In this document: piece by piece, positions 12,067-35,913 of the stretch
How the letters are laid out: every line of letters begins with the position of its first letter
Position numbering within the stretch: position 1 is the stretch's first letter
Translations under genes and position numbers: made by a program
DNA from: an uncultured Lachnospiraceae bacterium
GTDB lineage: Bacteria; Bacillota; Clostridia; Lachnospirales; Lachnospiraceae
Length of the DNA stretch: 35,913 nucleotides
Direction: 5' to 3'
NCBI GenBank assembly: GCA_902768735.1
Contig: CACXMK010000017.1
Span: forward strand, 1 to 35,913
The notes under the pieces: generated by a model
Database searches by the model: none
What the model saw: the letters and a program-made list of their open reading frames with translations, nothing else
What the model was told of the DNA's origin: nothing

Positions 12067-13677
12067 TCAGTCAATTAACTTCTCATATGCATACTGCGTG
12101 CCCTCCGCGATCGGCGCTATGGGCGTCATGTAATCTCCCGTGTACGGCGAGTCCTCCTCGGTGTGGCGGATGTGTACGGAACTTCCCAGGAAAGTCACCC
12201 ATCCTCTGTCCGTGGTGTACCGGTAGCTCTCGTCCGGGTCAAAAAAGGAACTCTCCTCCGAAGTAACGTTGAACATAAAGTGTTTGAGTTTGTTCATATA
12301 CCAATCCGAATGGATCGCCTCTTCGGCTATCTCGCTGTATTCCTCTTCGCTGTCAACCATTTCCTCGACGGTCATGTCATCCCACGTCGCGTCGACCTCG
12401 TACCACTCATCATCCAGCTCCACCAGGTTCCAGGAATGATTTCCTGCCGTCTCCTCTGAGTTGCCGGCTTTGCCCGTGATGACCAGGCATCTGATCCCTG
12501 CCTTCTGGAGCAGATATGCGTAGGCGTAGGTGTAGCCGTCGCAAACGGCAGTGTTGGCGTCGCCGCGGCTGTTCTCCACCAGCGCGCCGTACGCGGTGTG
12601 GCCGAGATCTTTACTCACGCTTTCGGGCGGGGCTTCGGGCCGGTCGGCGTCATCGTCATTTGCTTGCTCCGCGTCGCTCTGATCGGCATCCCGGTCTTCG
12701 TCCTGATCGGCGTCCCGGTCTTCGTCCTGATCGGTGCCTTGGTCAGCGTCCTGATTGGCGTCCCGGTCTTCGTCCTGATCGGTGCCTTGGTCAGCGTCCT
12801 GATCGGCGTCCCGGTCTTCGGCGTTGTCACCTGAGTCCTCATCTCTTATGAGCTCGTCCTCGCCCATGTCCCTGGCCAACTCGATGTCGTACGTAACAAG
12901 CCCGATCAGTTTGTCGTGGATCGCGAGCGCCACCTGCGGGTCAGGCTCTGTCAGGTCGATCTCATCGAGGAACTCGTCTGCCGCGCGCTCCAGCTCTGCC
13001 ATCTGCGCGTCCTTGTCGGGGAACGTCTTATTGGTCTGGAACGCCACCAGATAGCAATCGCTGTCAAATAACTTCCTCCTATAACTGAACTGGAAACTGC
13101 TGCCGCTCACCGACAGCCAGAACAGCTCCGGATGGTCAAAAATCAGCGCATTGTAACTCCTCCGGAAAGCCATGTGGAAGTCATCACTTGCCGGATCCAT
13201 GTAAAGCTCAATCCCCTCACCTCTCTCGGAAGGGTCCTCCGACAGGCAGCATGCAAGCAATATGTCGTAGATTATCTGCTCTTCTTCCGAAAGGCGGGTG
13301 CGGTAATAGTACATCGATTCATCTGCGACGTGATGCTCGATTTCCTGTGCGGCTTCCTCTGCTGCTTCCCCGGTGGAATCCTCTGGGGCGTCCTCTTCGA
13401 AGTCATCCGAGTCAGCTTCTGTGGTTTCTTCTGAGTCAGCTTCTGATGCTTCTTCTGAATTATCTTCTGTGATTTCTTCCGAAGCGTCCTCTGCTGCGTT
13501 CTTTTTGGCATCCCGCGCGCTATCCCGCGTGAAATCCTGTATGATGTTTTCTAATACACTCTGCGCAGTGCTCTGTTTTGCCGGCTCGCTCCCTTCCTGC
13601 TGCTCAGCGTAGGCAAACAGCGCTGACATTGTGATCATTGCGGCCAGAATAGCGGCCGCGAACGGCAATTTTCTCAT
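12067..13677 (-). CDS. Secreted transglutaminase-like protein with a long acidic repeat insert
   Basis: 536 residues from ATG 13677 (AAAGGGA upstream; an earlier in-frame start at 13707 is less likely). A signal peptide ends near FAYA (residue 24). An Asp/Glu/Ser-rich region follows (50-115), then a helical and beta region (120-275). Residues 280-345 are almost pure Asp/Gln/Glu/Arg in 6-residue repeats. The transglutaminase-like core comes next: Cys379 in ANTAVCDGYTYAYAYLL, His414 in NHSWNLVEL and Asp429 in YEVDATWDD, a complete Cys-His-Asp triad. The enzyme acts outside the cell, as a crosslinker, protease or amidase. The insert sits just before the catalytic Cys segment. Confidence 0.87.
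   Translation of the reverse strand: MRKLPFAAAILAAMITMSALFAYAEQQEGSEPAKQSTAQSVLENIIQDFTRDSARDAKKNAAEDASEEITEDNSEEASEADSEETTEADSDDFEEDAPEDSTGEAAEEAAQEIEHHVADESMYYYRTRLSEEEQIIYDILLACCLSEDPSERGEGIELYMDPASDDFHMAFRRSYNALIFDHPELFWLSVSGSSFQFSYRRKLFDSDCYLVAFQTNKTFPDKDAQMAELERAADEFLDEIDLTEPDPQVALAIHDKLIGLVTYDIELARDMGEDELIRDEDSGDNAEDRDADQDADQGTDQDEDRDANQDADQGTDQDEDRDADQDEDRDADQSDAEQANDDDADRPEAPPESVSKDLGHTAYGALVENSRGDANTAVCDGYTYAYAYLLQKAGIRCLVITGKAGNSEETAGNHSWNLVELDDEWYEVDATWDDMTVEEMVDSEEEYSEIAEEAIHSDWYMNKLKHFMFNVTSEESSFFDPDESYRYTTDRGWVTFLGSSVHIRHTEEDSPYTGDYMTPIAPIAEGTQYAYEKLID
12664..12830 (-). repeat. In-frame tandem repeat coding the Asp/Gln/Glu/Arg stretch
   Basis: Multiples of 18 bp, built from GATCGGCGTCCCGGTCTTCG-type blocks, are assembled into longer repeated pairs. 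Reading frame is preserved. It is the coding counterpart of the minisatellites at 3' ends. Confidence 0.75.
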
Positions 13678-13726
13678 ATATGCGGTGTCCCTTTCTGAAT
13701 TGGGCAAATTTCTTCGTTGTACTGCC

Positions 13727-20445: not shown

Positions 20446-23400
20446 TTAGTGAAACTTTGCTTTGATCCAAACCACCGCGGCCAGAGCAAGAAAAGCCGCT
20501 GCAGGCAATAGCCCGCTCCTGTAGAGGTGGACCAAAAGGTTGGAGCTTACCAACACGCGGTATTCCTGTTCTCCGGCATCTGCTTGCTGCTTGGAGTCTG
20601 CACCTGCCGCGTCGCCGGCGTCATCCGCCTGCTCTCCATGATCCGCACCGGAATAATCGCCTTCCGCCTCTTCAATTCCCAACAGCCCGCTGCTATAGTT
20701 GCCCGCTCCATCCGCCGCGGTAGCTGTCATTGTCTGCCACTTTTCAGAAGCATTGATCTTGACCGGTACCTCTCCTCTGTTGCTGCCGAGAATTTCCTCC
20801 AGCTCCGCTTTTTCAAATTGATATTCTTCGAGAATTGAGCCCTTGTCATCCCTGATCTGAACCGCCAGGCTCTGCAGCTCCATGTTGTCTTCAGGAAGCA
20901 GATGGATCTCAATCGCATCCGTCACAAATCTTCGCTGATCCGTTTCTGAACCCACGATTCTCACGGCGGGCGGTGTTTTGTCAACGGCCCATTCCGGGGA
21001 ATTGTCAGTCGCTCTGCCGGTCAGATCTCCCCTTCGAAAGCGTCCCGGACTGCTGTTGTGCCGGCCTGCCGCATCGTCCGATTCCAGGAGCAGGCTGTAT
21101 TTCCCCTCCTCATGAAATGCAGAGGGGTCGATCCTATAAACATATTTCCATCCGGACCTGCCCGCGCTCTCCGCGACCGCGTAATCGACGCCTTCCGTCA
21201 GCACATGCCCAGCGCCGTTTCGGAACAGCGTGACCTGCCTTCCGATCAGCGGCGACACATTGTACTCCGCCACGACAAACGGACGGTCCGCACTCGTGTA
21301 GTAACCGCCGATCATTTCCAGCGTCCCTGCGTCCTCCGTGAGGTCATAGAGCGACCCGAACCGGTTCACGCTCAGATTTCTTCTGACAAAAACCCGGTTT
21401 CCCGCAAGGTCGCAGGCCGTTCCGAGCAGCACGCAGACGCCGTCCGACGCTCTCTCCCGCATAAGATCAGGGAGCGCGATGCTGCCTGCGCTTTTTACAG
21501 CGATACCGGCGTCTCCTTCAGCTGCGCTCACCGATCCTGTCGGGTCTCCGCCCCGGCATTCCATGGTCCGCCCGCCCGCGCTCACGTTGCTCCACACCAC
21601 ATAGCAGGCGGCCGGCGAGGGGTTCTCCTCCTCCCAACGGAGCACCGGCGAGATCTCGTCGGCGTACGCAGCCGCCTCCCTCACCGTCCCCTTGTCAAAA
21701 CACAGCCTCGGCGCAGTCCAGTCCAGCACAAACGGAGCTTCCGAGACGGGCACAGCCGTATTTCCGGCCAGATCCATGCAGGTGCATTGCAGCGCCCACT
21801 CCCCTTCTCCCGTATAGGGCAGCTCCATCTCATAGACAACCGCTGCCAAAGCAGTTCCCGCGGCCGCTCTTCGCCCATCGACCAAGCGAAATCCCGTTGA
21901 GCGGGGCACGATTTTGACCCTGTCTTCGTCAAACGAAAGGTCCGTTATGCGGATCGTCGCCACTCGCTCCCGATTGTAATACCTGCCGTTTCGCACGTCA
22001 TTGTTGTCCCAGAAAACTTCGATGCGCGGAGGCGTCGCATCTATAACAAAGGCCCTGGGCGCTTCTCCTGCATAGCGCACCACCGCCGGATTCCCGAGCG
22101 CGTCCGCGCCGCCCACATCCAGCGTGTATGCGCCGTCCGCGGGAAAGCGCACTTCCATGATCCAGATGTCTGCGTCACCAGTGCCGCCAAGCTGCTGCCA
22201 CACATCCGCACTGCTCGTGCCGCCGCCAAGCTGCTGCCATGCGTCCGCACCGCCCGTGCCGTTGCCGGGCTGCTGCCATGCGTCCGCACTGCCCGTGCCG
22301 TTGCCGGGCTGTCGCCATGCGTCCGCACTGCCCGTGCCGTTGCCGGGCTGTCGCCATGCGTCCGCACTGCCTCTCATTCTTCTCCACGTCCCGACCTGTG
22401 CGCCCGGTGCGCTTACGATCAGCGTCCCCGCGTCAAAGTTCCGCTCGCGCACAGCGATCCGCGCCGTCCTCTCCCTGTCAAAGTACATCCCGTTCCGCAC
22501 CTCGTTGTTATCATAGACAACGGTCACTTCCGGGCTCGTCGTGTCGATCCCGAACCGGATGATCCCGCCCTCGCGCGGGTCCGAGAGATTCCCGGCGTTG
22601 TCCTCCGCGGCGACCCGCACCACGATGTCGTTGCTCTCCCACTGCCCGCCCGACGGGATCGTGATCCGCCCGCTATAGCGGTACACCGGCCGGTTCTCCG
22701 CGTCCGGGTCGGCGGACGCATCCTCACCGCGAAAGAGGGTTGCTGCGGAGGTCAGTGTTTTGCCATCCAGAAGGACGTCGTAGCGCACTTCCCTAAGTCC
22801 GGAGGCGCCGGCTTCCCTGCCCGGATCCTCCGCCGTGACTTCCAGCGTCACCTGCCCGCCGTACAGCGGCTGCCCGTCCGCGCTCCTCGCGGTGATCGAC
22901 GAAACGGCGCGCACCGAAGCCGACGGCGCGTCGATGTCCGCCTCCGGCAGCCTTATGTCAAAATACAGATTCACCGTCCTCCCAAGCCCTGCCGACTCGT
23001 TCCCGGCGCGGTCGCGGAAGACGACGTCCTCGAGCCGGAGGACCTGCTCGCCGTGAATCGCGGCCTGCGTGTTACAGCGATGTCTGTAAAGCGTCCCATC
23101 CGGTGCGGGATCGTTGCCGCTTTCCGCTGCCGAACTGCCACTTCCTGCTGCCGAACTGCTGCTGCCTGCCGTCGAACTGCCGCCGCCTGCTGTCGAACTG
23201 CCGCCGCCTGCTGCCGAACTGCTGCTGCCTGCCGTCGATCGGATCCTGCAGGAGACGCTGACCGGCGAGGTGTCCGCGGCATTCCAGCGAATCACCGCAT
23301 CCGTCTCTCTCCGATATGGCATGAAGCCTTCGCGATCGGTGACCCAGACGTCGCCGTGCTGTTCCACTCTGTAATAAACATTTCCCGCATTGTTCTCAAA

Positions 23401-25431
23401 GCTCAGCCCGCCGACCGGCGCAACCGTATCCACCACCTTCCTCCCGGTGAGAAAAACACCGCGAGCCGCATCCTCGCAGACCACGCCGTATAGCTCGTCT
23501 TCGTGCTCCGGTTCTGCCTCACTGCTGCCTGCGTCTTCTGCTCCGCTATTGCCTGTACCTTCTACTCCACTGTTGCCTATACCTTCTGCTCCGCTGTTGC
23601 CTGTACCTTCTGCCCCGCTGTTGCCTGTATCTTCTGCCCCGCTGTTGCCTGTATCTTCTGCTCCGCCGCTGCCCAGCTTGAGCGGATTTCCCGCTTTATC
23701 CGTGCCCTGCACACCAAAGCGATAGACTCCATCCGGCGTATCATCCTGCGCCGGGTGCCTGACGATCTGCAAGGTCAGGGTGCTTGCGGGTCCGTTTTCA
23801 GCAGCCTGTGCTCCCCAGCTGCACCCCGCTCCGACTTCTTCCGCCTGCTCCGGCATGATCTCCTCGCAGTTTCTCCCTTCAGGCACCTGCGCGTAAGCTA
23901 TGAGGGGAAGTATTCTGCCGGGGTCTATGTTTTGGTCGATGATCGTGAATGCCGCTGTGATCGACGGCGCTCCGCCTCCGTATTGATCCGCGTTCTTTCC
24001 ATAATAAATAAGCCCGCTGCCGCGATCGATGGCGCTGGGATTGCCGATGGGCAGGCTGATCGCTGTGGTAAGCACGGGGCAAACCGTATCGCGCACGATC
24101 GTTGCGCCAGGGCGGCAGACCGCCGGGGCCCCCTGCCCGGTCACATCCTCTGTCAAGGTGAATGGCGCATTTTTCTTCGTCCAATCATCCGTCGACCCGC
24201 TGACATAAATAGTGGAGCCCATCACCTCGCGCACGGTCAGCGGATTGCCGGCCCGGTCCCTCCCATACGCGCCGAACCGCATCCGGCAGTCGGTGGTGAT
24301 GCTGGTTTCGTTGCCGGGAAACTCTATTGGTTCTGCTGCTCCGGTTTCCTGGGCTGTCTCTGCTCCGCCTTCCCACATCAAAAACCCATACAACTCCTCG
24401 TCCAGCGGCACCTCCAGTCCCGCGCCCCCGTCCCACACGCGCAGCGCCACCTCTACATCCGCAGAAAAGTACGCCTCCATCCCGCCCTCCTCGTACAGAT
24501 AGCCGTCCGCCGCACTCATATAGCGAATCTCCGCCACCGGCGCCTCCGTATCCAAAACATAGCCAAACTCACCCTCTCCCCTATTCCCGGCAGCGTCCTC
24601 CGCCTCCGCTTTCACGGTGATCATCCCATCCGAAAGGGCGGCGATTTCTTCTGTGCTGATCAGTTTTTCTTTCCGCTCGATCCGGTTATCCTGCTGCTCG
24701 CCGGGATCTTCGGAAGGATTTTCTGCCGGTTCTGTTTCAGGGTTCTCCCACTCTCTCCGGATCTCATTTCCTTTACAGTCTGTGACCACAACCCGATAAG
24801 CCGTAATGCCTGAATCTTCTTCCCTGCTTTCCTCAAATACTATGCAGATTCCGGCGTTGTCACTTCTACAATAAATATTGCCTTCCGCATCTTCGCTGAC
24901 TTCCTCTGTCATTTGAAATTGAATGGTCGGTGCATAGGGATCCTCCGGCTGCTGGGGCTCATCAGGGGTTTCCGGATCCTCAGGTATTTCCGGGTTTTCT
25001 GGAGTTTCCGGTTCAATTGCCGCGGCTTCCGTTGCATCTGTATCTGCAATTTCTGTTGTTGCGGCTTCTGTTTCTGTTGTTGCAGCTTCTGTTGTCCCTT
25101 CTTCTATGGTTTCTATTTCTGCTGCTGCGGCTTCTGTTGCATCTGATTCAGCAACTTCTATTTCTAAAGCCGTGGCTTCCGTTGCACTTATTTCCGGTGC
25201 CTCCGCCGCTGACACATTCTGTCCGATCACCAAAATCCACACGCCCACTGCGAGCACGGCAAGTAAGCTGACGCGGCGGCTGTGTTTTGACAAAAGTGCG
25301 TTGCGCAGCTTGTCTGCCAGCCCCTCCCTCACCAGCAGGACGACGGCTCCGGCGACGGTCGCCAGCGTCAGGCCCAGGCACAGGGCGGCCATGGCCCTGC
25401 AGATTTCTTCCCACATGATCCGATCCAACAT
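20446..25431 (-). CDS. Large membrane-anchored surface protein with many Ig-like modules
   Basis: 1661 residues. Two N-terminal hydrophobic segments (about 12-34 and 53-71), an Ala/Glu/Thr-rich stalk (75-170), a long extracellular region, and a C-terminal membrane helix ending in Lys-Ala-Lys-Phe-His. The body is a string of beta-sandwich modules, each closing with D.AGN (DAAGN, DRAGNP, DKAGNP, DNAGN, DLAGN, DGAGN), as in bacterial Ig-like surface proteins. Two modules share DNN(E/D)VRNG.Y..RER.A.I. Three low-complexity tandem-repeat linkers interrupt it. Likely adhesive or sensory. ATG 25431 has AGGAG five bases upstream. It lies 152 bp downstream of a Ser/Thr kinase gene on the same strand. 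Confidence 0.85.
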   Translation of the reverse strand: MLDRIMWEEICRAMAALCLGLTLATVAGAVVLLVREGLADKLRNALLSKHSRRVSLLAVLAVGVWILVIGQNVSAAEAPEISATEATALEIEVAESDATEAAAAEIETIEEGTTEAATTETEAATTEIADTDATEAAAIEPETPENPEIPEDPETPDEPQQPEDPYAPTIQFQMTEEVSEDAEGNIYCRSDNAGICIVFEESREEDSGITAYRVVVTDCKGNEIRREWENPETEPAENPSEDPGEQQDNRIERKEKLISTEEIAALSDGMITVKAEAEDAAGNRGEGEFGYVLDTEAPVAEIRYMSAADGYLYEEGGMEAYFSADVEVALRVWDGGAGLEVPLDEELYGFLMWEGGAETAQETGAAEPIEFPGNETSITTDCRMRFGAYGRDRAGNPLTVREVMGSTIYVSGSTDDWTKKNAPFTLTEDVTGQGAPAVCRPGATIVRDTVCPVLTTAISLPIGNPSAIDRGSGLIYYGKNADQYGGGAPSITAAFTIIDQNIDPGRILPLIAYAQVPEGRNCEEIMPEQAEEVGAGCSWGAQAAENGPASTLTLQIVRHPAQDDTPDGVYRFGVQGTDKAGNPLKLGSGGAEDTGNSGAEDTGNSGAEGTGNSGAEGIGNSGVEGTGNSGAEDAGSSEAEPEHEDELYGVVCEDAARGVFLTGRKVVDTVAPVGGLSFENNAGNVYYRVEQHGDVWVTDREGFMPYRRETDAVIRWNAADTSPVSVSCRIRSTAGSSSSAAGGGSSTAGGGSSTAGSSSSAAGSGSSAAESGNDPAPDGTLYRHRCNTQAAIHGEQVLRLEDVVFRDRAGNESAGLGRTVNLYFDIRLPEADIDAPSASVRAVSSITARSADGQPLYGGQVTLEVTAEDPGREAGASGLREVRYDVLLDGKTLTSAATLFRGEDASADPDAENRPVYRYSGRITIPSGGQWESNDIVVRVAAEDNAGNLSDPREGGIIRFGIDTTSPEVTVVYDNNEVRNGMYFDRERTARIAVRERNFDAGTLIVSAPGAQVGTWRRMRGSADAWRQPGNGTGSADAWRQPGNGTGSADAWQQPGNGTGGADAWQQLGGGTSSADVWQQLGGTGDADIWIMEVRFPADGAYTLDVGGADALGNPAVVRYAGEAPRAFVIDATPPRIEVFWDNNDVRNGRYYNRERVATIRITDLSFDEDRVKIVPRSTGFRLVDGRRAAAGTALAAVVYEMELPYTGEGEWALQCTCMDLAGNTAVPVSEAPFVLDWTAPRLCFDKGTVREAAAYADEISPVLRWEEENPSPAACYVVWSNVSAGGRTMECRGGDPTGSVSAAEGDAGIAVKSAGSIALPDLMRERASDGVCVLLGTACDLAGNRVFVRRNLSVNRFGSLYDLTEDAGTLEMIGGYYTSADRPFVVAEYNVSPLIGRQVTLFRNGAGHVLTEGVDYAVAESAGRSGWKYVYRIDPSAFHEEGKYSLLLESDDAAGRHNSSPGRFRRGDLTGRATDNSPEWAVDKTPPAVRIVGSETDQRRFVTDAIEIHLLPEDNMELQSLAVQIRDDKGSILEEYQFEKAELEEILGSNRGEVPVKINASEKWQTMTATAADGAGNYSSGLLGIEEAEGDYSGADHGEQADDAGDAAGADSKQQADAGEQEYRVLVSSNLLVHLYRSGLLPAAAFLALAAVVWIKAKFH
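22160..22372 (-). repeat. 39-bp in-frame tandem repeat (about 5 copies) in the Ig-protein gene
   Basis: It codes 13-residue units of GSADAWRQPGNGT type between two Ig-like modules. The last copies are nearly identical, implying recent expansion. Confidence 0.85.
23110..23240 (-). repeat. Ser/Ala/Gly-rich in-frame tandem repeat in the Ig-protein gene
   Basis: About 21-bp units (SSTAGGG and SSSSAAG types) are repeated six or so times. Confidence 0.75.
23520..23675 (-). repeat. 24-bp in-frame tandem repeat in the Ig-protein gene
   Basis: Six to seven copies of an 8-residue unit GAEDTGNS with E/D/I/V variation. Confidence 0.8.
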
Positions 25432-25513
25432 GCATACTCCTACTCCGCCTCTCCGATTTGCGTTTAATAGTTGCCTGTCTTTTACTTTCAAAATTGTTTG
25501 TGATTTGCGTCTA

Positions 25514-27665: not shown

Positions 27666-27845
27666 TTGGGTACAGATGCAGTTTTTCCAGTTTTGTTCCC
27701 CCGGGATTTCCGGCTTTTGGGCATAGAGGCCCTGTGCCAAAAAAGTGCGACCTCTGTATTTTGGCGTTTCTGAACGATATTGGGCACCAAGAAGCATTCC
27801 TGATGAATTGTTCTCCCTACTCCCCTACTGAAAAGGAGAACATCT
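27666..27845 (+). repeat. Left copy of the TTGGGC/TGTTC repeat block (3 units)
   Basis: Units: TTGGGTAC 27666-27673, 19-nt core, TTGTTC 27693-27698; TTGGGCAT 27717-27724, 20-nt core, GTGCGACC 27745-27752; TTGGGCAC 27780-27787, 20-nt core, TTGTTC 27808-27813. The block from 27661 to 27845 aligns over its whole length with 28735-28915 in the same orientation, ending in both with a CTCC ... GAAAAGGAGAAC dyad. The middle unit folds into ATAGAGG/CCTCTGT (27723-27729 / 27751-27757). Confidence 0.75.
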
Positions 27846-28456
27846 CAACCCCCAGGAACTCCTTGATCTTATCCTGAGCGATTGTAATGTCGAAAGGATG
27901 CCCATCGCTCTCGTAAGTCAGGATCAGGTTGTGGTCTGGAAGAAGGCCGTTGTTAATATAGACCCGAAACTTTGTCAGGAAATCAGACCTGTAGCCCGGC
28001 TTGTCAAGCATGCCGACATGTTCCCAGTAGTAGTATTCGCCGGTCACTGGGTGGCGGATCGTAAAGTCGGGATAATATACATGATTGCCGATATCCAGCC
28101 TGGCATCGTAGCGATACGGGATATGAAGCGTCGAGATCCGAGTTCTCCCTGTATTTTGCCAAAAAGGCATCAACCGCACGAATCTGCGCCTTCACATCGC
28201 GAAGCCGCTTCACCCGGAGCCGTTTTTTTGCGAGTGCGCGCGCATAGTTCCGGTTCTTCTGGGGAATATAGATCTTCGTCCGCTTTCCTTCCTTGGTGCG
28301 GCCGGAAACGTACCACTTGTAAAATATCTTGTTATTTACTGTGTTTTTGCTGTAGATGAGCGAGCCGGGCGGTGCGCTGCTGATCTGCTTTTCGAGCTTG
28401 CGCTCTTCTTTCAGCAGGTTCTGCCTGGCTTCCAGCATGAGTTTTCGAAGTGTCAT
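27817..28456 (-). pseudogene. Broken gene of a clostridial PD-(D/E)XK-like nuclease family (internal deletion with frameshift)
   Basis: The N-terminal part reads from ATG 28456 (GGAGGAAAGGAG upstream): a basic coiled coil, then GRTKEGKRTKIYIPQKN and AIRA.D.FLAKYRENSDLD-type helices (about 110 residues). Near 28126-28138 the frame shifts. The other frame continues with HIPYRYDARLDIGNHVYYPD, FTIRHPVTG, YYYWEHVGMLDKPGYRSDFL and NLILTYE to a stop at 27817. From memory intact relatives are about 320-340 residues and have roughly 100 residues more between these parts, including a SKSE-type helix. PDF plus WEH.G resembles a PD-(D/E)XK nuclease core (inferred). The copy should be inactive. Confidence 0.7.
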
Positions 28457-28507
28457 GAAACTCCTTTCCTCCGAATGGAGACAGAAATGTGGTCGAGAAT
28501 ATTGCCA

Positions 28508-28571
28508 ATGCCAGTTGTAACGGGTTGTATCCATGCAGGCGCCTGCTGCGGCGGGCGGATACAACTGGCAT
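28508..28571 (-). repeat. Long inverted repeat with two competing left arms
   Basis: ATGCCAGTTGTA (28508-28519) pairs perfectly with TACAACTGGCAT (28560-28571). GTTGTATCC (28524-28532) pairs perfectly with GGATACAAC (28557-28565), which overlaps the same right arm. The centre is the 12-bp palindrome GCAGGCGCCTGC (28535-28546). The structures are mutually exclusive, as in an attenuator or a cruciform end. It lies about 50 bp upstream of the broken gene's start. Confidence 0.75.
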
Positions 28572-28604
28572 CATATACAATGTAATACAAATCAAAGCGT
28601 TTCG

Positions 28605-28625
28605 TTGCCCCCGCTACGGGGGCAA
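28605..28625. repeat. Perfect 9-bp hairpin TTGCCCCCG-CTA-CGGGGGCAA
   Basis: It is isolated between the inverted repeat and the right repeat block, with no T-tract, so it is not an obvious terminator. Confidence 0.7.
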
Positions 28626-28656
28626 ACATATGTAGGGTTTGCTTTTAGACCGGCGG

Positions 28657-28945
28657 TTGGGCACAGACGGCAGTTTTGTATAAATTGTTCCCCTTTTAGA
28701 CTGCCACTGTCTCTGCTGTATCTGGCAGACTTTGGGCGTTTGGGCACAACAACTGATTTTTCAGATTTGTTCCCCCGAGATTTCCTGCTTTTGGGCACAG
28801 GGGCACTGAGCCAAAAAAGTGTGACCCCTGTCTTTTCACGTATCCGGGTGATATTGGGCACCATAAGGCAATCCCCTATAATTGTTCTCCTTGCATCCCT
28901 TGTGAAAAGGAGAACAATTCCTATAGAAATCTCTGCTATGCCCAG
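28657..28945 (+). repeat. Right copy of the TTGGGC/TGTTC repeat block (4 forward units, 1 inverted)
   Basis: Forward units: TTGGGCAC 28657 with 20-nt core and TTGTTC 28685-28690; TTGGGCAC 28740 with 19-nt core and TTGTTC 28767-28772; TTGGGCAC 28791 with 20-nt core and GTGTGACC 28819-28826; TTGGGCAC 28854 with 20-nt core and TTGTTC 28882-28887. Inverted unit: GAACAA 28912-28917, 20-nt core, ATGCCCAG 28938-28945. The third unit folds as ACAGGGG/CCCCTGT (28797-28803 / 28825-28831). A weak inverted candidate follows at 29030-29062. Confidence 0.75.
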
Positions 28946-35641: not shown

Positions 35642-35838
35642 TTGGGTACAGCGGCGGCTTTTGTTTGATTTGTTCTCCCTCCATCTGATGGTTGGGCGTG
35701 ACAAAGGCATTCACAAAAAATGTTCCATCTAGTTTCATGGTGGTTGGGCGTGATGAAACTATTCTAAGAAAATGTTCCTCAAATACTGACTAGTCTTAGG
35801 AAAGTTGGGCGTGACAGGGACATACGGGAAAAGTGTTC
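35642..35838 (+). repeat. Second array of the TTGGGC/TGTTC repeat (4 units) at the window edge
   Basis: TTGGGTAC 35642-35649 / core / TTGTTC 35670-35675; TTGGGCGT 35692-35699 / core / ATGTTC 35720-35725; TTGGGCGT 35744-35751 / core / ATGTTC 35772-35777; TTGGGCGT 35805-35812 / core / GTGTTC 35833-35838. The core is 20 nt in all four. The last three form a sub-family (GCGTGA arm). The region 35592-35913 holds no gene; the last 40 bases contain a CAAAACACTGCCCGC motif also seen near 4224 and 8258. Confidence 0.75.
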
Positions 35839-35913
35839 CCAAAATCAGGCTGATGGTTGTATACATTTTTCAAAACACTGCCCGCTGCGCCCAACTCTGC
35901 CGCTCATCACAAT

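What the first reader, a model, noticed from the sequence alone, without database searches (positions are those of the whole stretch)
27666..28945. Interspersed repeat with conserved arms and a constant-length variable core, clustered around a broken nuclease-like gene
Seven forward units and one inverted unit have the form TTGGGC(A/G)(C/T), N19-20, (T/A/G)TGTTC. I measured core lengths 19, 20, 20 on the left and 20, 19, 20, 20 plus 20 (inverted) on the right. Arms are conserved while cores differ, and length is held. Four more units at 35642-35838 have 20-nt cores; none were found elsewhere in 36 kb. Constant spacing suggests a protein-binding or folded unit: transposon-end binding sites, structured RNA units or a recombination array.
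Basis: seen in the sequence. Interest (0 to 1): 0.8.

Follow-up and report, generated by a model that had tools for sequence, protein, structure and literature searches.

The report
Helically phased repeats paired with nuclease
In a large family of gut bacteria, an unnamed gene for a likely DNA-cutting enzyme often sits beside its own array of short mirror-image repeats spaced by whole turns of the DNA helix, and copies of such repeats are scattered through some genomes; this looks like an unrecognised kind of mobile repeat system, though nothing has been tested at the bench.

Summary
The window shows a decayed copy of something larger. Intact relatives of the broken gene form a family of about 265-residue proteins with a C-terminal PD-(D/E)XK-like domain, seen full-length almost only in Lachnospiraceae and without a Pfam or NCBIfam family. 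57 of 87 loci carry a tandem array within 1 kb, mostly each with its own repeat. Upstream 0-500 bp: 44 of 82; beyond 1 kb: 0-13% per bin. Array periods cluster at 5, 6 and 7 helical turns (best fit 10.45 bp), and the number of turns follows the protein tree. In the window's genus, units also form roughly 300-bp composites (forward units, then inverted units) between unrelated genes; one site is empty in 9 of 9 informative sister genomes. I infer that the protein binds its array on one face of duplex DNA and spreads the repeats by cutting. The layout resembles REP/RAYT, but the enzyme is not Y1-like by any search. Binding, cutting and mobilisation are untested.

The parts
27666..27698 (+). repeat unit, strict
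27717..27750 (+). degenerate unit, right arm GTGCGAC instead of TGTTC; end approximate
   Evidence: read
27780..27813 (+). repeat unit, strict
27844..28137 (-). C-terminal (nuclease-domain) fragment of the broken gene, 73% identical to residues 213-310 of the intact contig-11 protein P0003
28007..28456 (-). N-terminal fragment of the broken gene (other frame); matches the start of P0003. The stretch between the two matches, with the invariant RSKSE motif, is missing
28657..28690 (+). repeat unit, strict
28740..28772 (+). repeat unit, strict
28791..28824 (+). degenerate unit, right arm GTGTGAC; end approximate
   Evidence: read
28854..28887 (+). repeat unit, strict
28912..28945 (-). inverted unit with CTGGGC left arm
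35642..35838 (+). four forward units (35642, 35692, 35744, 35805), left half of a type-1 composite that runs into the contig end at 35913; contig 11 begins with the sequence that ends the window

Best explanation
The window holds a decayed copy of a two-part system: a stand-alone PD-(D/E)XK-type nuclease gene and an array of dyad repeats that serve as its DNA sites. Shown by computation: (1) the gene family is tied to tandem arrays, mostly just upstream, sometimes on both sides; (2) in many arrays the unit carries an inverted-repeat pair; (3) unit spacing clusters at whole turns of B-DNA; (4) the number of turns follows the protein clade; (5) in the genomes examined the repeats also occur away from the gene, and in the window's genus as discrete composites of forward units facing inverted units; (6) one such composite is an insertion relative to sister species. 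Inferred: the protein binds units side by side on one face of duplex DNA (perhaps through its N-terminal sheet-and-helix part), cuts at or beside the array, and its cuts (by strand transfer or by repair copying) create gene-less composites and lengthen arrays. Gene and repeats would form a selfish pair, REP/RAYT-like in layout but with another enzyme. My odds: binding of its own array 0.85; being the enzyme that spreads it 0.5.
Against: No binding, cutting or movement was measured. 30 of 87 loci show no array of period 45-110 within 1 kb. G224's gene has no strict unit in the fetched 5.7 kb (its contig ends about 370 bp upstream) although its genome holds 24 hits. G244 and G259 have clustered units only at the gene. 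The lysine of PD-(D/E)XK is replaced (E251-H252-x-G254). Structural Z stays under 8 and Foldseek gives no hit at E 0.001. No target-site duplication was seen. Far arrays also lean to 10.5 bp (R 0.40, 18 arrays). Related loci are not independent. A mobilising enzyme elsewhere in these genomes was not searched for.
Confidence: 0.6

Rival explanations
1. The array is an operator, centromere-like or decoy platform for the protein (autoregulation, chromosome organisation or defence). The scattered composites are moved by another enzyme or by recombination, not by this nuclease.
For: Arrays lie mostly upstream of the gene (44 of 82 against 18 of 86 downstream). Phasing and clade-specific spacing need only binding.
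Against: Arrays occur on both sides and as gene-less composites inserted between other genes, more than a plain operator needs.
Confidence: 0.2
2. The composites are ordinary miniature elements of an unseen DDE or Y1 (RAYT-like) transposase, and the nuclease gene is a passenger or happens to insert in them.
For: Composites have facing terminal units. The genome search could not be used to look for Y1 or DDE genes in these genomes (cap reached).
Against: The link holds across homologues with unrelated repeats. Spacing follows the nuclease tree. No transposase-like or other neighbour recurs (gene kinds by my reading).
Confidence: 0.1
3. A type III toxin-antitoxin-like system: the upstream tandem array encodes an RNA antitoxin for the nuclease.
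For: A tandem array between promoter and nuclease gene is the layout described for ToxIN (PMC8860590, passages).
Against: Arrays also lie downstream, on both strands and far from the gene. Spacing is quantised in helical turns of DNA. No Rfam match at the arrays of 10 sources.
Confidence: 0.05

Closest known systems
REP / BIME / REPIN repeats with RAYT (Y1 transposase, TnpA-REP)
   Same: Intergenic palindromic repeats in clusters, units in opposite orientation, a single associated gene flanked by its repeats, gene-specific repeat sequence, repeat abundance going with gene presence (PMC2817692, PMC3116915; passages).
   Different: Enzyme of another superfamily: no Y1 match in Pfam for 37 members, PD-(D/E)XK-like domain instead. 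Units in long direct arrays spaced by whole helical turns. Host group Lachnospiraceae.
Tn7-type transposon ends and TnsA
PD-(D/E)XK homing endonuclease I-Bth0305I
   Different: No sign of insertion in a conserved coding target; the gene lies beside arrays in varied contexts.
PADLOC PDC-S68 and HEAT_CxxC_PDDEXK candidate defence proteins
   Same: Shared C-terminal nuclease domain: 37 of 37 members match PDC-S68 models, 26 of 37 HEAT_CxxC_PDDEXK.
   Different: PDC-S68 models are about 1,200 residues long. Seven domain-only loci have no arrays (0 of 7).
Type III toxin-antitoxin (ToxIN)
   Same: Tandem array upstream of a nuclease gene.
   Different: Arrays also downstream, inverted and dispersed; DNA-turn spacing; no Rfam match.

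Membership tests
REP/RAYT system | Y1 (HUH) transposase domain in the associated protein | tested here: not met
   No Y1 transposase family in Pfam at E 0.01 for any of 37 members; PD-(D/E)XK-like matches instead
REP/RAYT system | gene flanked by its own palindromic repeats | tested here: met
   57 of 87 loci have an array within 1 kb; 36 of 80 near arrays pass the inverted-repeat test; both sides in a minority
REP/RAYT system | repeats dispersed through the genome in inverted pairs | tested here: met
   In the window's genus. In G009 dispersal is slight
PD-(D/E)XK superfamily | nuclease core with conserved acidic residues | tested here: met
PD-(D/E)XK superfamily | motif lysine two residues after the third acidic residue | tested here: not met
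   E251-H252-x-G254; an invariant K204 could stand in, which is inference
Tn7-type transposon | DDE partner (TnsB-like) gene nearby | tested here: inconclusive
   No neighbour gene shared by more than 11 of 84 loci; genomes not searched for one elsewhere
Tn7-type transposon | target-site duplication | tested here: inconclusive
   None seen by eye in flanks; the sister site is too diverged to fix the ends
TnsA family | TnsA fold and sequence relationship | tested here: inconclusive
Type III toxin-antitoxin | array only upstream on the gene's strand, making RNA | tested here: not met
   Arrays downstream and dispersed on both strands; RNA itself not testable

The most novel reading that the evidence does not exclude
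A single PD-(D/E)XK protein, without a DDE or Y1 partner, lines up on helically phased dyad repeats and by itself writes, lengthens and transposes those repeats: another enzymatic route to bacterial repeat populations, with array geometry set by the protein while the target sequence drifts.
Probability: 0.35. Interest if true: 0.95.

Novelty: categorically new. Interest (0 to 1): 0.85.

Why it matters
If true, a common unannotated gene family of Lachnospiraceae is the partner of a class of intergenic repeats at which assemblies break, and bacterial repeats can be kept and spread by a nuclease superfamily that no paper I found links to this role. That spacing class follows the protein gives a direct test of how a protein reads repeat geometry.

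Tried and rejected
Tried without result: target-site duplications by eye; empty-site test at the contig-40 composite (downstream neighbour found in 0 of 7 relatives); PDB sequence search; Foldseek (no hit at E 0.001; the N-terminal part matched prefoldin-like and other long helices); plasmids with one query, L044 (7 records, none covering 80%); phages with one query, L103 (2 records, one covering 82%); viral contigs (3 loci, nuclease domain only). An integrase-arm-like N-terminal domain is my impression, not a tool result. Structured-RNA and toxin-antitoxin readings were set aside for the reasons given.

Similarity of repeats between homologues is a weak test: 0 of 44 pairs at 50-60% identity and 1 of 9 at 60-80% pass the cut, but only 2 of 6 above 80% do, and genus members at 64-67% identity clearly share the motif. 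So fast drift of the repeat is likely, not measured.

Limits: TRF misses short or degenerate arrays and counts coding repeats (L069 5659-5926, period 66, looks coding to me). The period set was restricted to 45-110 bp. The inverted-repeat test used mononucleotide shuffles of consensus units; nearly all arrays of the four species nearest the window fail it (their dyad GGGYACA...TGTTCCC is imperfect). Dropped rows: L045 and L046, also L047; L071 (truncated); 15 of 24 sister loci without the downstream gene (L253 not run).

Novelty searches: (two found nothing); no listed title links PD-(D/E)XK proteins to REP-like repeats. Only open PMC papers were searched. Papers seen: PMC3116915, PMC2817692, PMC8860590 by passages; others as listings.

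Full report
Observation. The window lies in an assembly of 2.73 Mb in 157 contigs; its nearest named relatives are uncultured Lachnospiraceae. The motif is real: 9 strict units against 0.08 expected and 39 exact hits genome-wide against 0 for the reversed pattern. Two forward units of the finding lack the TGTTC arm. Unit length is 33 or 34 in 74 of 74 units. The arms form an imperfect dyad, GGGYACA...TGTTCCC.

The broken gene. Fragments at 28007-28456 and 27844-28137 match an intact gene in contig 11 of the same genome. Neither match covers the invariant RSKSE motif, so the window copy is very likely dead. In 8 sister genomes a homologue sits next to the same helicase gene. In 22 of 30 helicase loci retrieved no homologue was found in the fetched stretch; one of these, in G202, is a contig piece of a genome that does have the pair.

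Arrays. In 87 loci, tandem arrays crowd against the gene: 44 of 82 within 500 bp upstream, 19 of 71 at 500-1000 bp upstream, 18 of 86 within 500 bp downstream, 0-13% in each bin beyond 1 kb. New places gave 12 of 25 (genus) and 5 of 8 (phylum scan) with an array on either side; proteins that share only the nuclease domain gave 0 of 7. Repeats differ between loci: GGGTCAG...CTGACCC, CAGTTGTAA...TTACAACTG, GTGACCGCA...TGCGGTCAC and so on. 36 of 80 near arrays pass an inverted-repeat test, against 3 of 18 far arrays, two of which (L084, L124) look like further copies of a gene-linked repeat. 30 of 87 loci have no such array within 1 kb.

Phasing. The periods of 55 loci cluster at 51-54, 61-64 and 70-75 bp, with single values at 57, 59, 66, 86 and 94. 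The best common divisor in a scan from 6 to 16 is 10.45 bp, R 0.72, phase near zero. With 26 clade values chosen by me R is 0.55, p 3e-4. Eighteen far arrays give R 0.40. The spacing class goes with the protein: same class in 93% of 44 pairs at 50-60% identity, 9 of 9 above 60%, 60% of 103 at 40-50%, 24-29% below 40%; nearest neighbours agree in 29 of 53 against 16.8 by chance. On a tree 13 changes suffice against 23.2 for shuffled labels, 0 of 200 as low. I take this as the strongest sign that the protein reads the array. Whole-turn spacing points to duplex DNA bound on one face, not RNA hairpins.

Dispersal. In G190 the repeat of one gene occurs 32 times, nearly all in clusters, control 0. 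In G009 it is mainly at the gene with two further places. In the genus, counts of the window motif are highest in genomes with a close homologue (7 against 54 genomes, p 1.3e-5; p 4.6e-5 without the window's own). Two of the seven, G244 and G259, have clustered units only at the gene (G259 has two isolated hits elsewhere), and G224's gene has none in the fetched stretch. Composites with both orientations run forward then inverted in 15 of 15 and in 18 of 18 typed from the hit lists, largely the same ones. Nine type-1 stretches were aligned, some truncated or at contig ends; the fuller ones begin at GGTTGGGCG and end at GCCCAACC with unrelated flanks, and some carry one more unit outside. At the contig-23 composite, 9 of 9 sister genomes with both flanking genes lack it; at least five show the two genes with 120-300 bp between them against about 700. 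The locus in G223 reads FFF-R-gene-FFF-RR, and the four nearest named species have the gene between direct copies of one array.

Mechanism. Binding by the encoded protein is inferred from linkage, phasing and clade-specific spacing. Cutting is inferred from the domain and its conserved acidic residues, with the caution that the usual lysine is replaced. Mobilisation by this protein is inferred from composites, the empty site and the lack of a recurrent neighbour gene (largest cluster 11 of 84 loci); another enzyme acting in trans is not excluded.

Comparison. The layout matches that described for RAYTs and REPs (PMC2817692, PMC3116915; passages), but the enzyme differs, and helical phasing of this kind I do not know from REPs (recalled). 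It is not filed as a RAYT system. Type III toxin-antitoxin shares the upstream array only (PMC8860590). My paper searches found no earlier report, which does not cover subscription journals or preprints.

Noticed in passing
window 35642-35913 and L001 1-170: The window and contig end inside a type-1 composite; contig 11 starts with the same letters, so these repeats break the assembly.
   Followed up: partly
L139 (G000 contig 48) and L145 (G000 contig 18): Two more family members in the same genome, about 30-35% identical; L139 has its own 64-bp array, different from the window's repeat.
   Followed up: partly
L284 (G212 contig 65) and L285 (G232 contig 100): Seemingly the same composite in two species differs by one exactly repeated unit, which suggests recent unit gain or loss.
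   Followed up: no
L005 1838-1873 (G000 contig 37): A truncated composite: about one and a half units, then unrelated sequence.
   Followed up: no
phage record MT839528.1: A human faecal phage record of 4.2 kb encodes a relative (34% identity over 82% of the query).
   Followed up: no
window 20446-25491 (-): A 1681-residue open frame with internal repeats rich in G, S, A and N.
   Followed up: no
window 12067-13707 (-): A 546-residue open frame with a long aspartate-rich repeat, DADQGTDQDEDRD.
   Followed up: no
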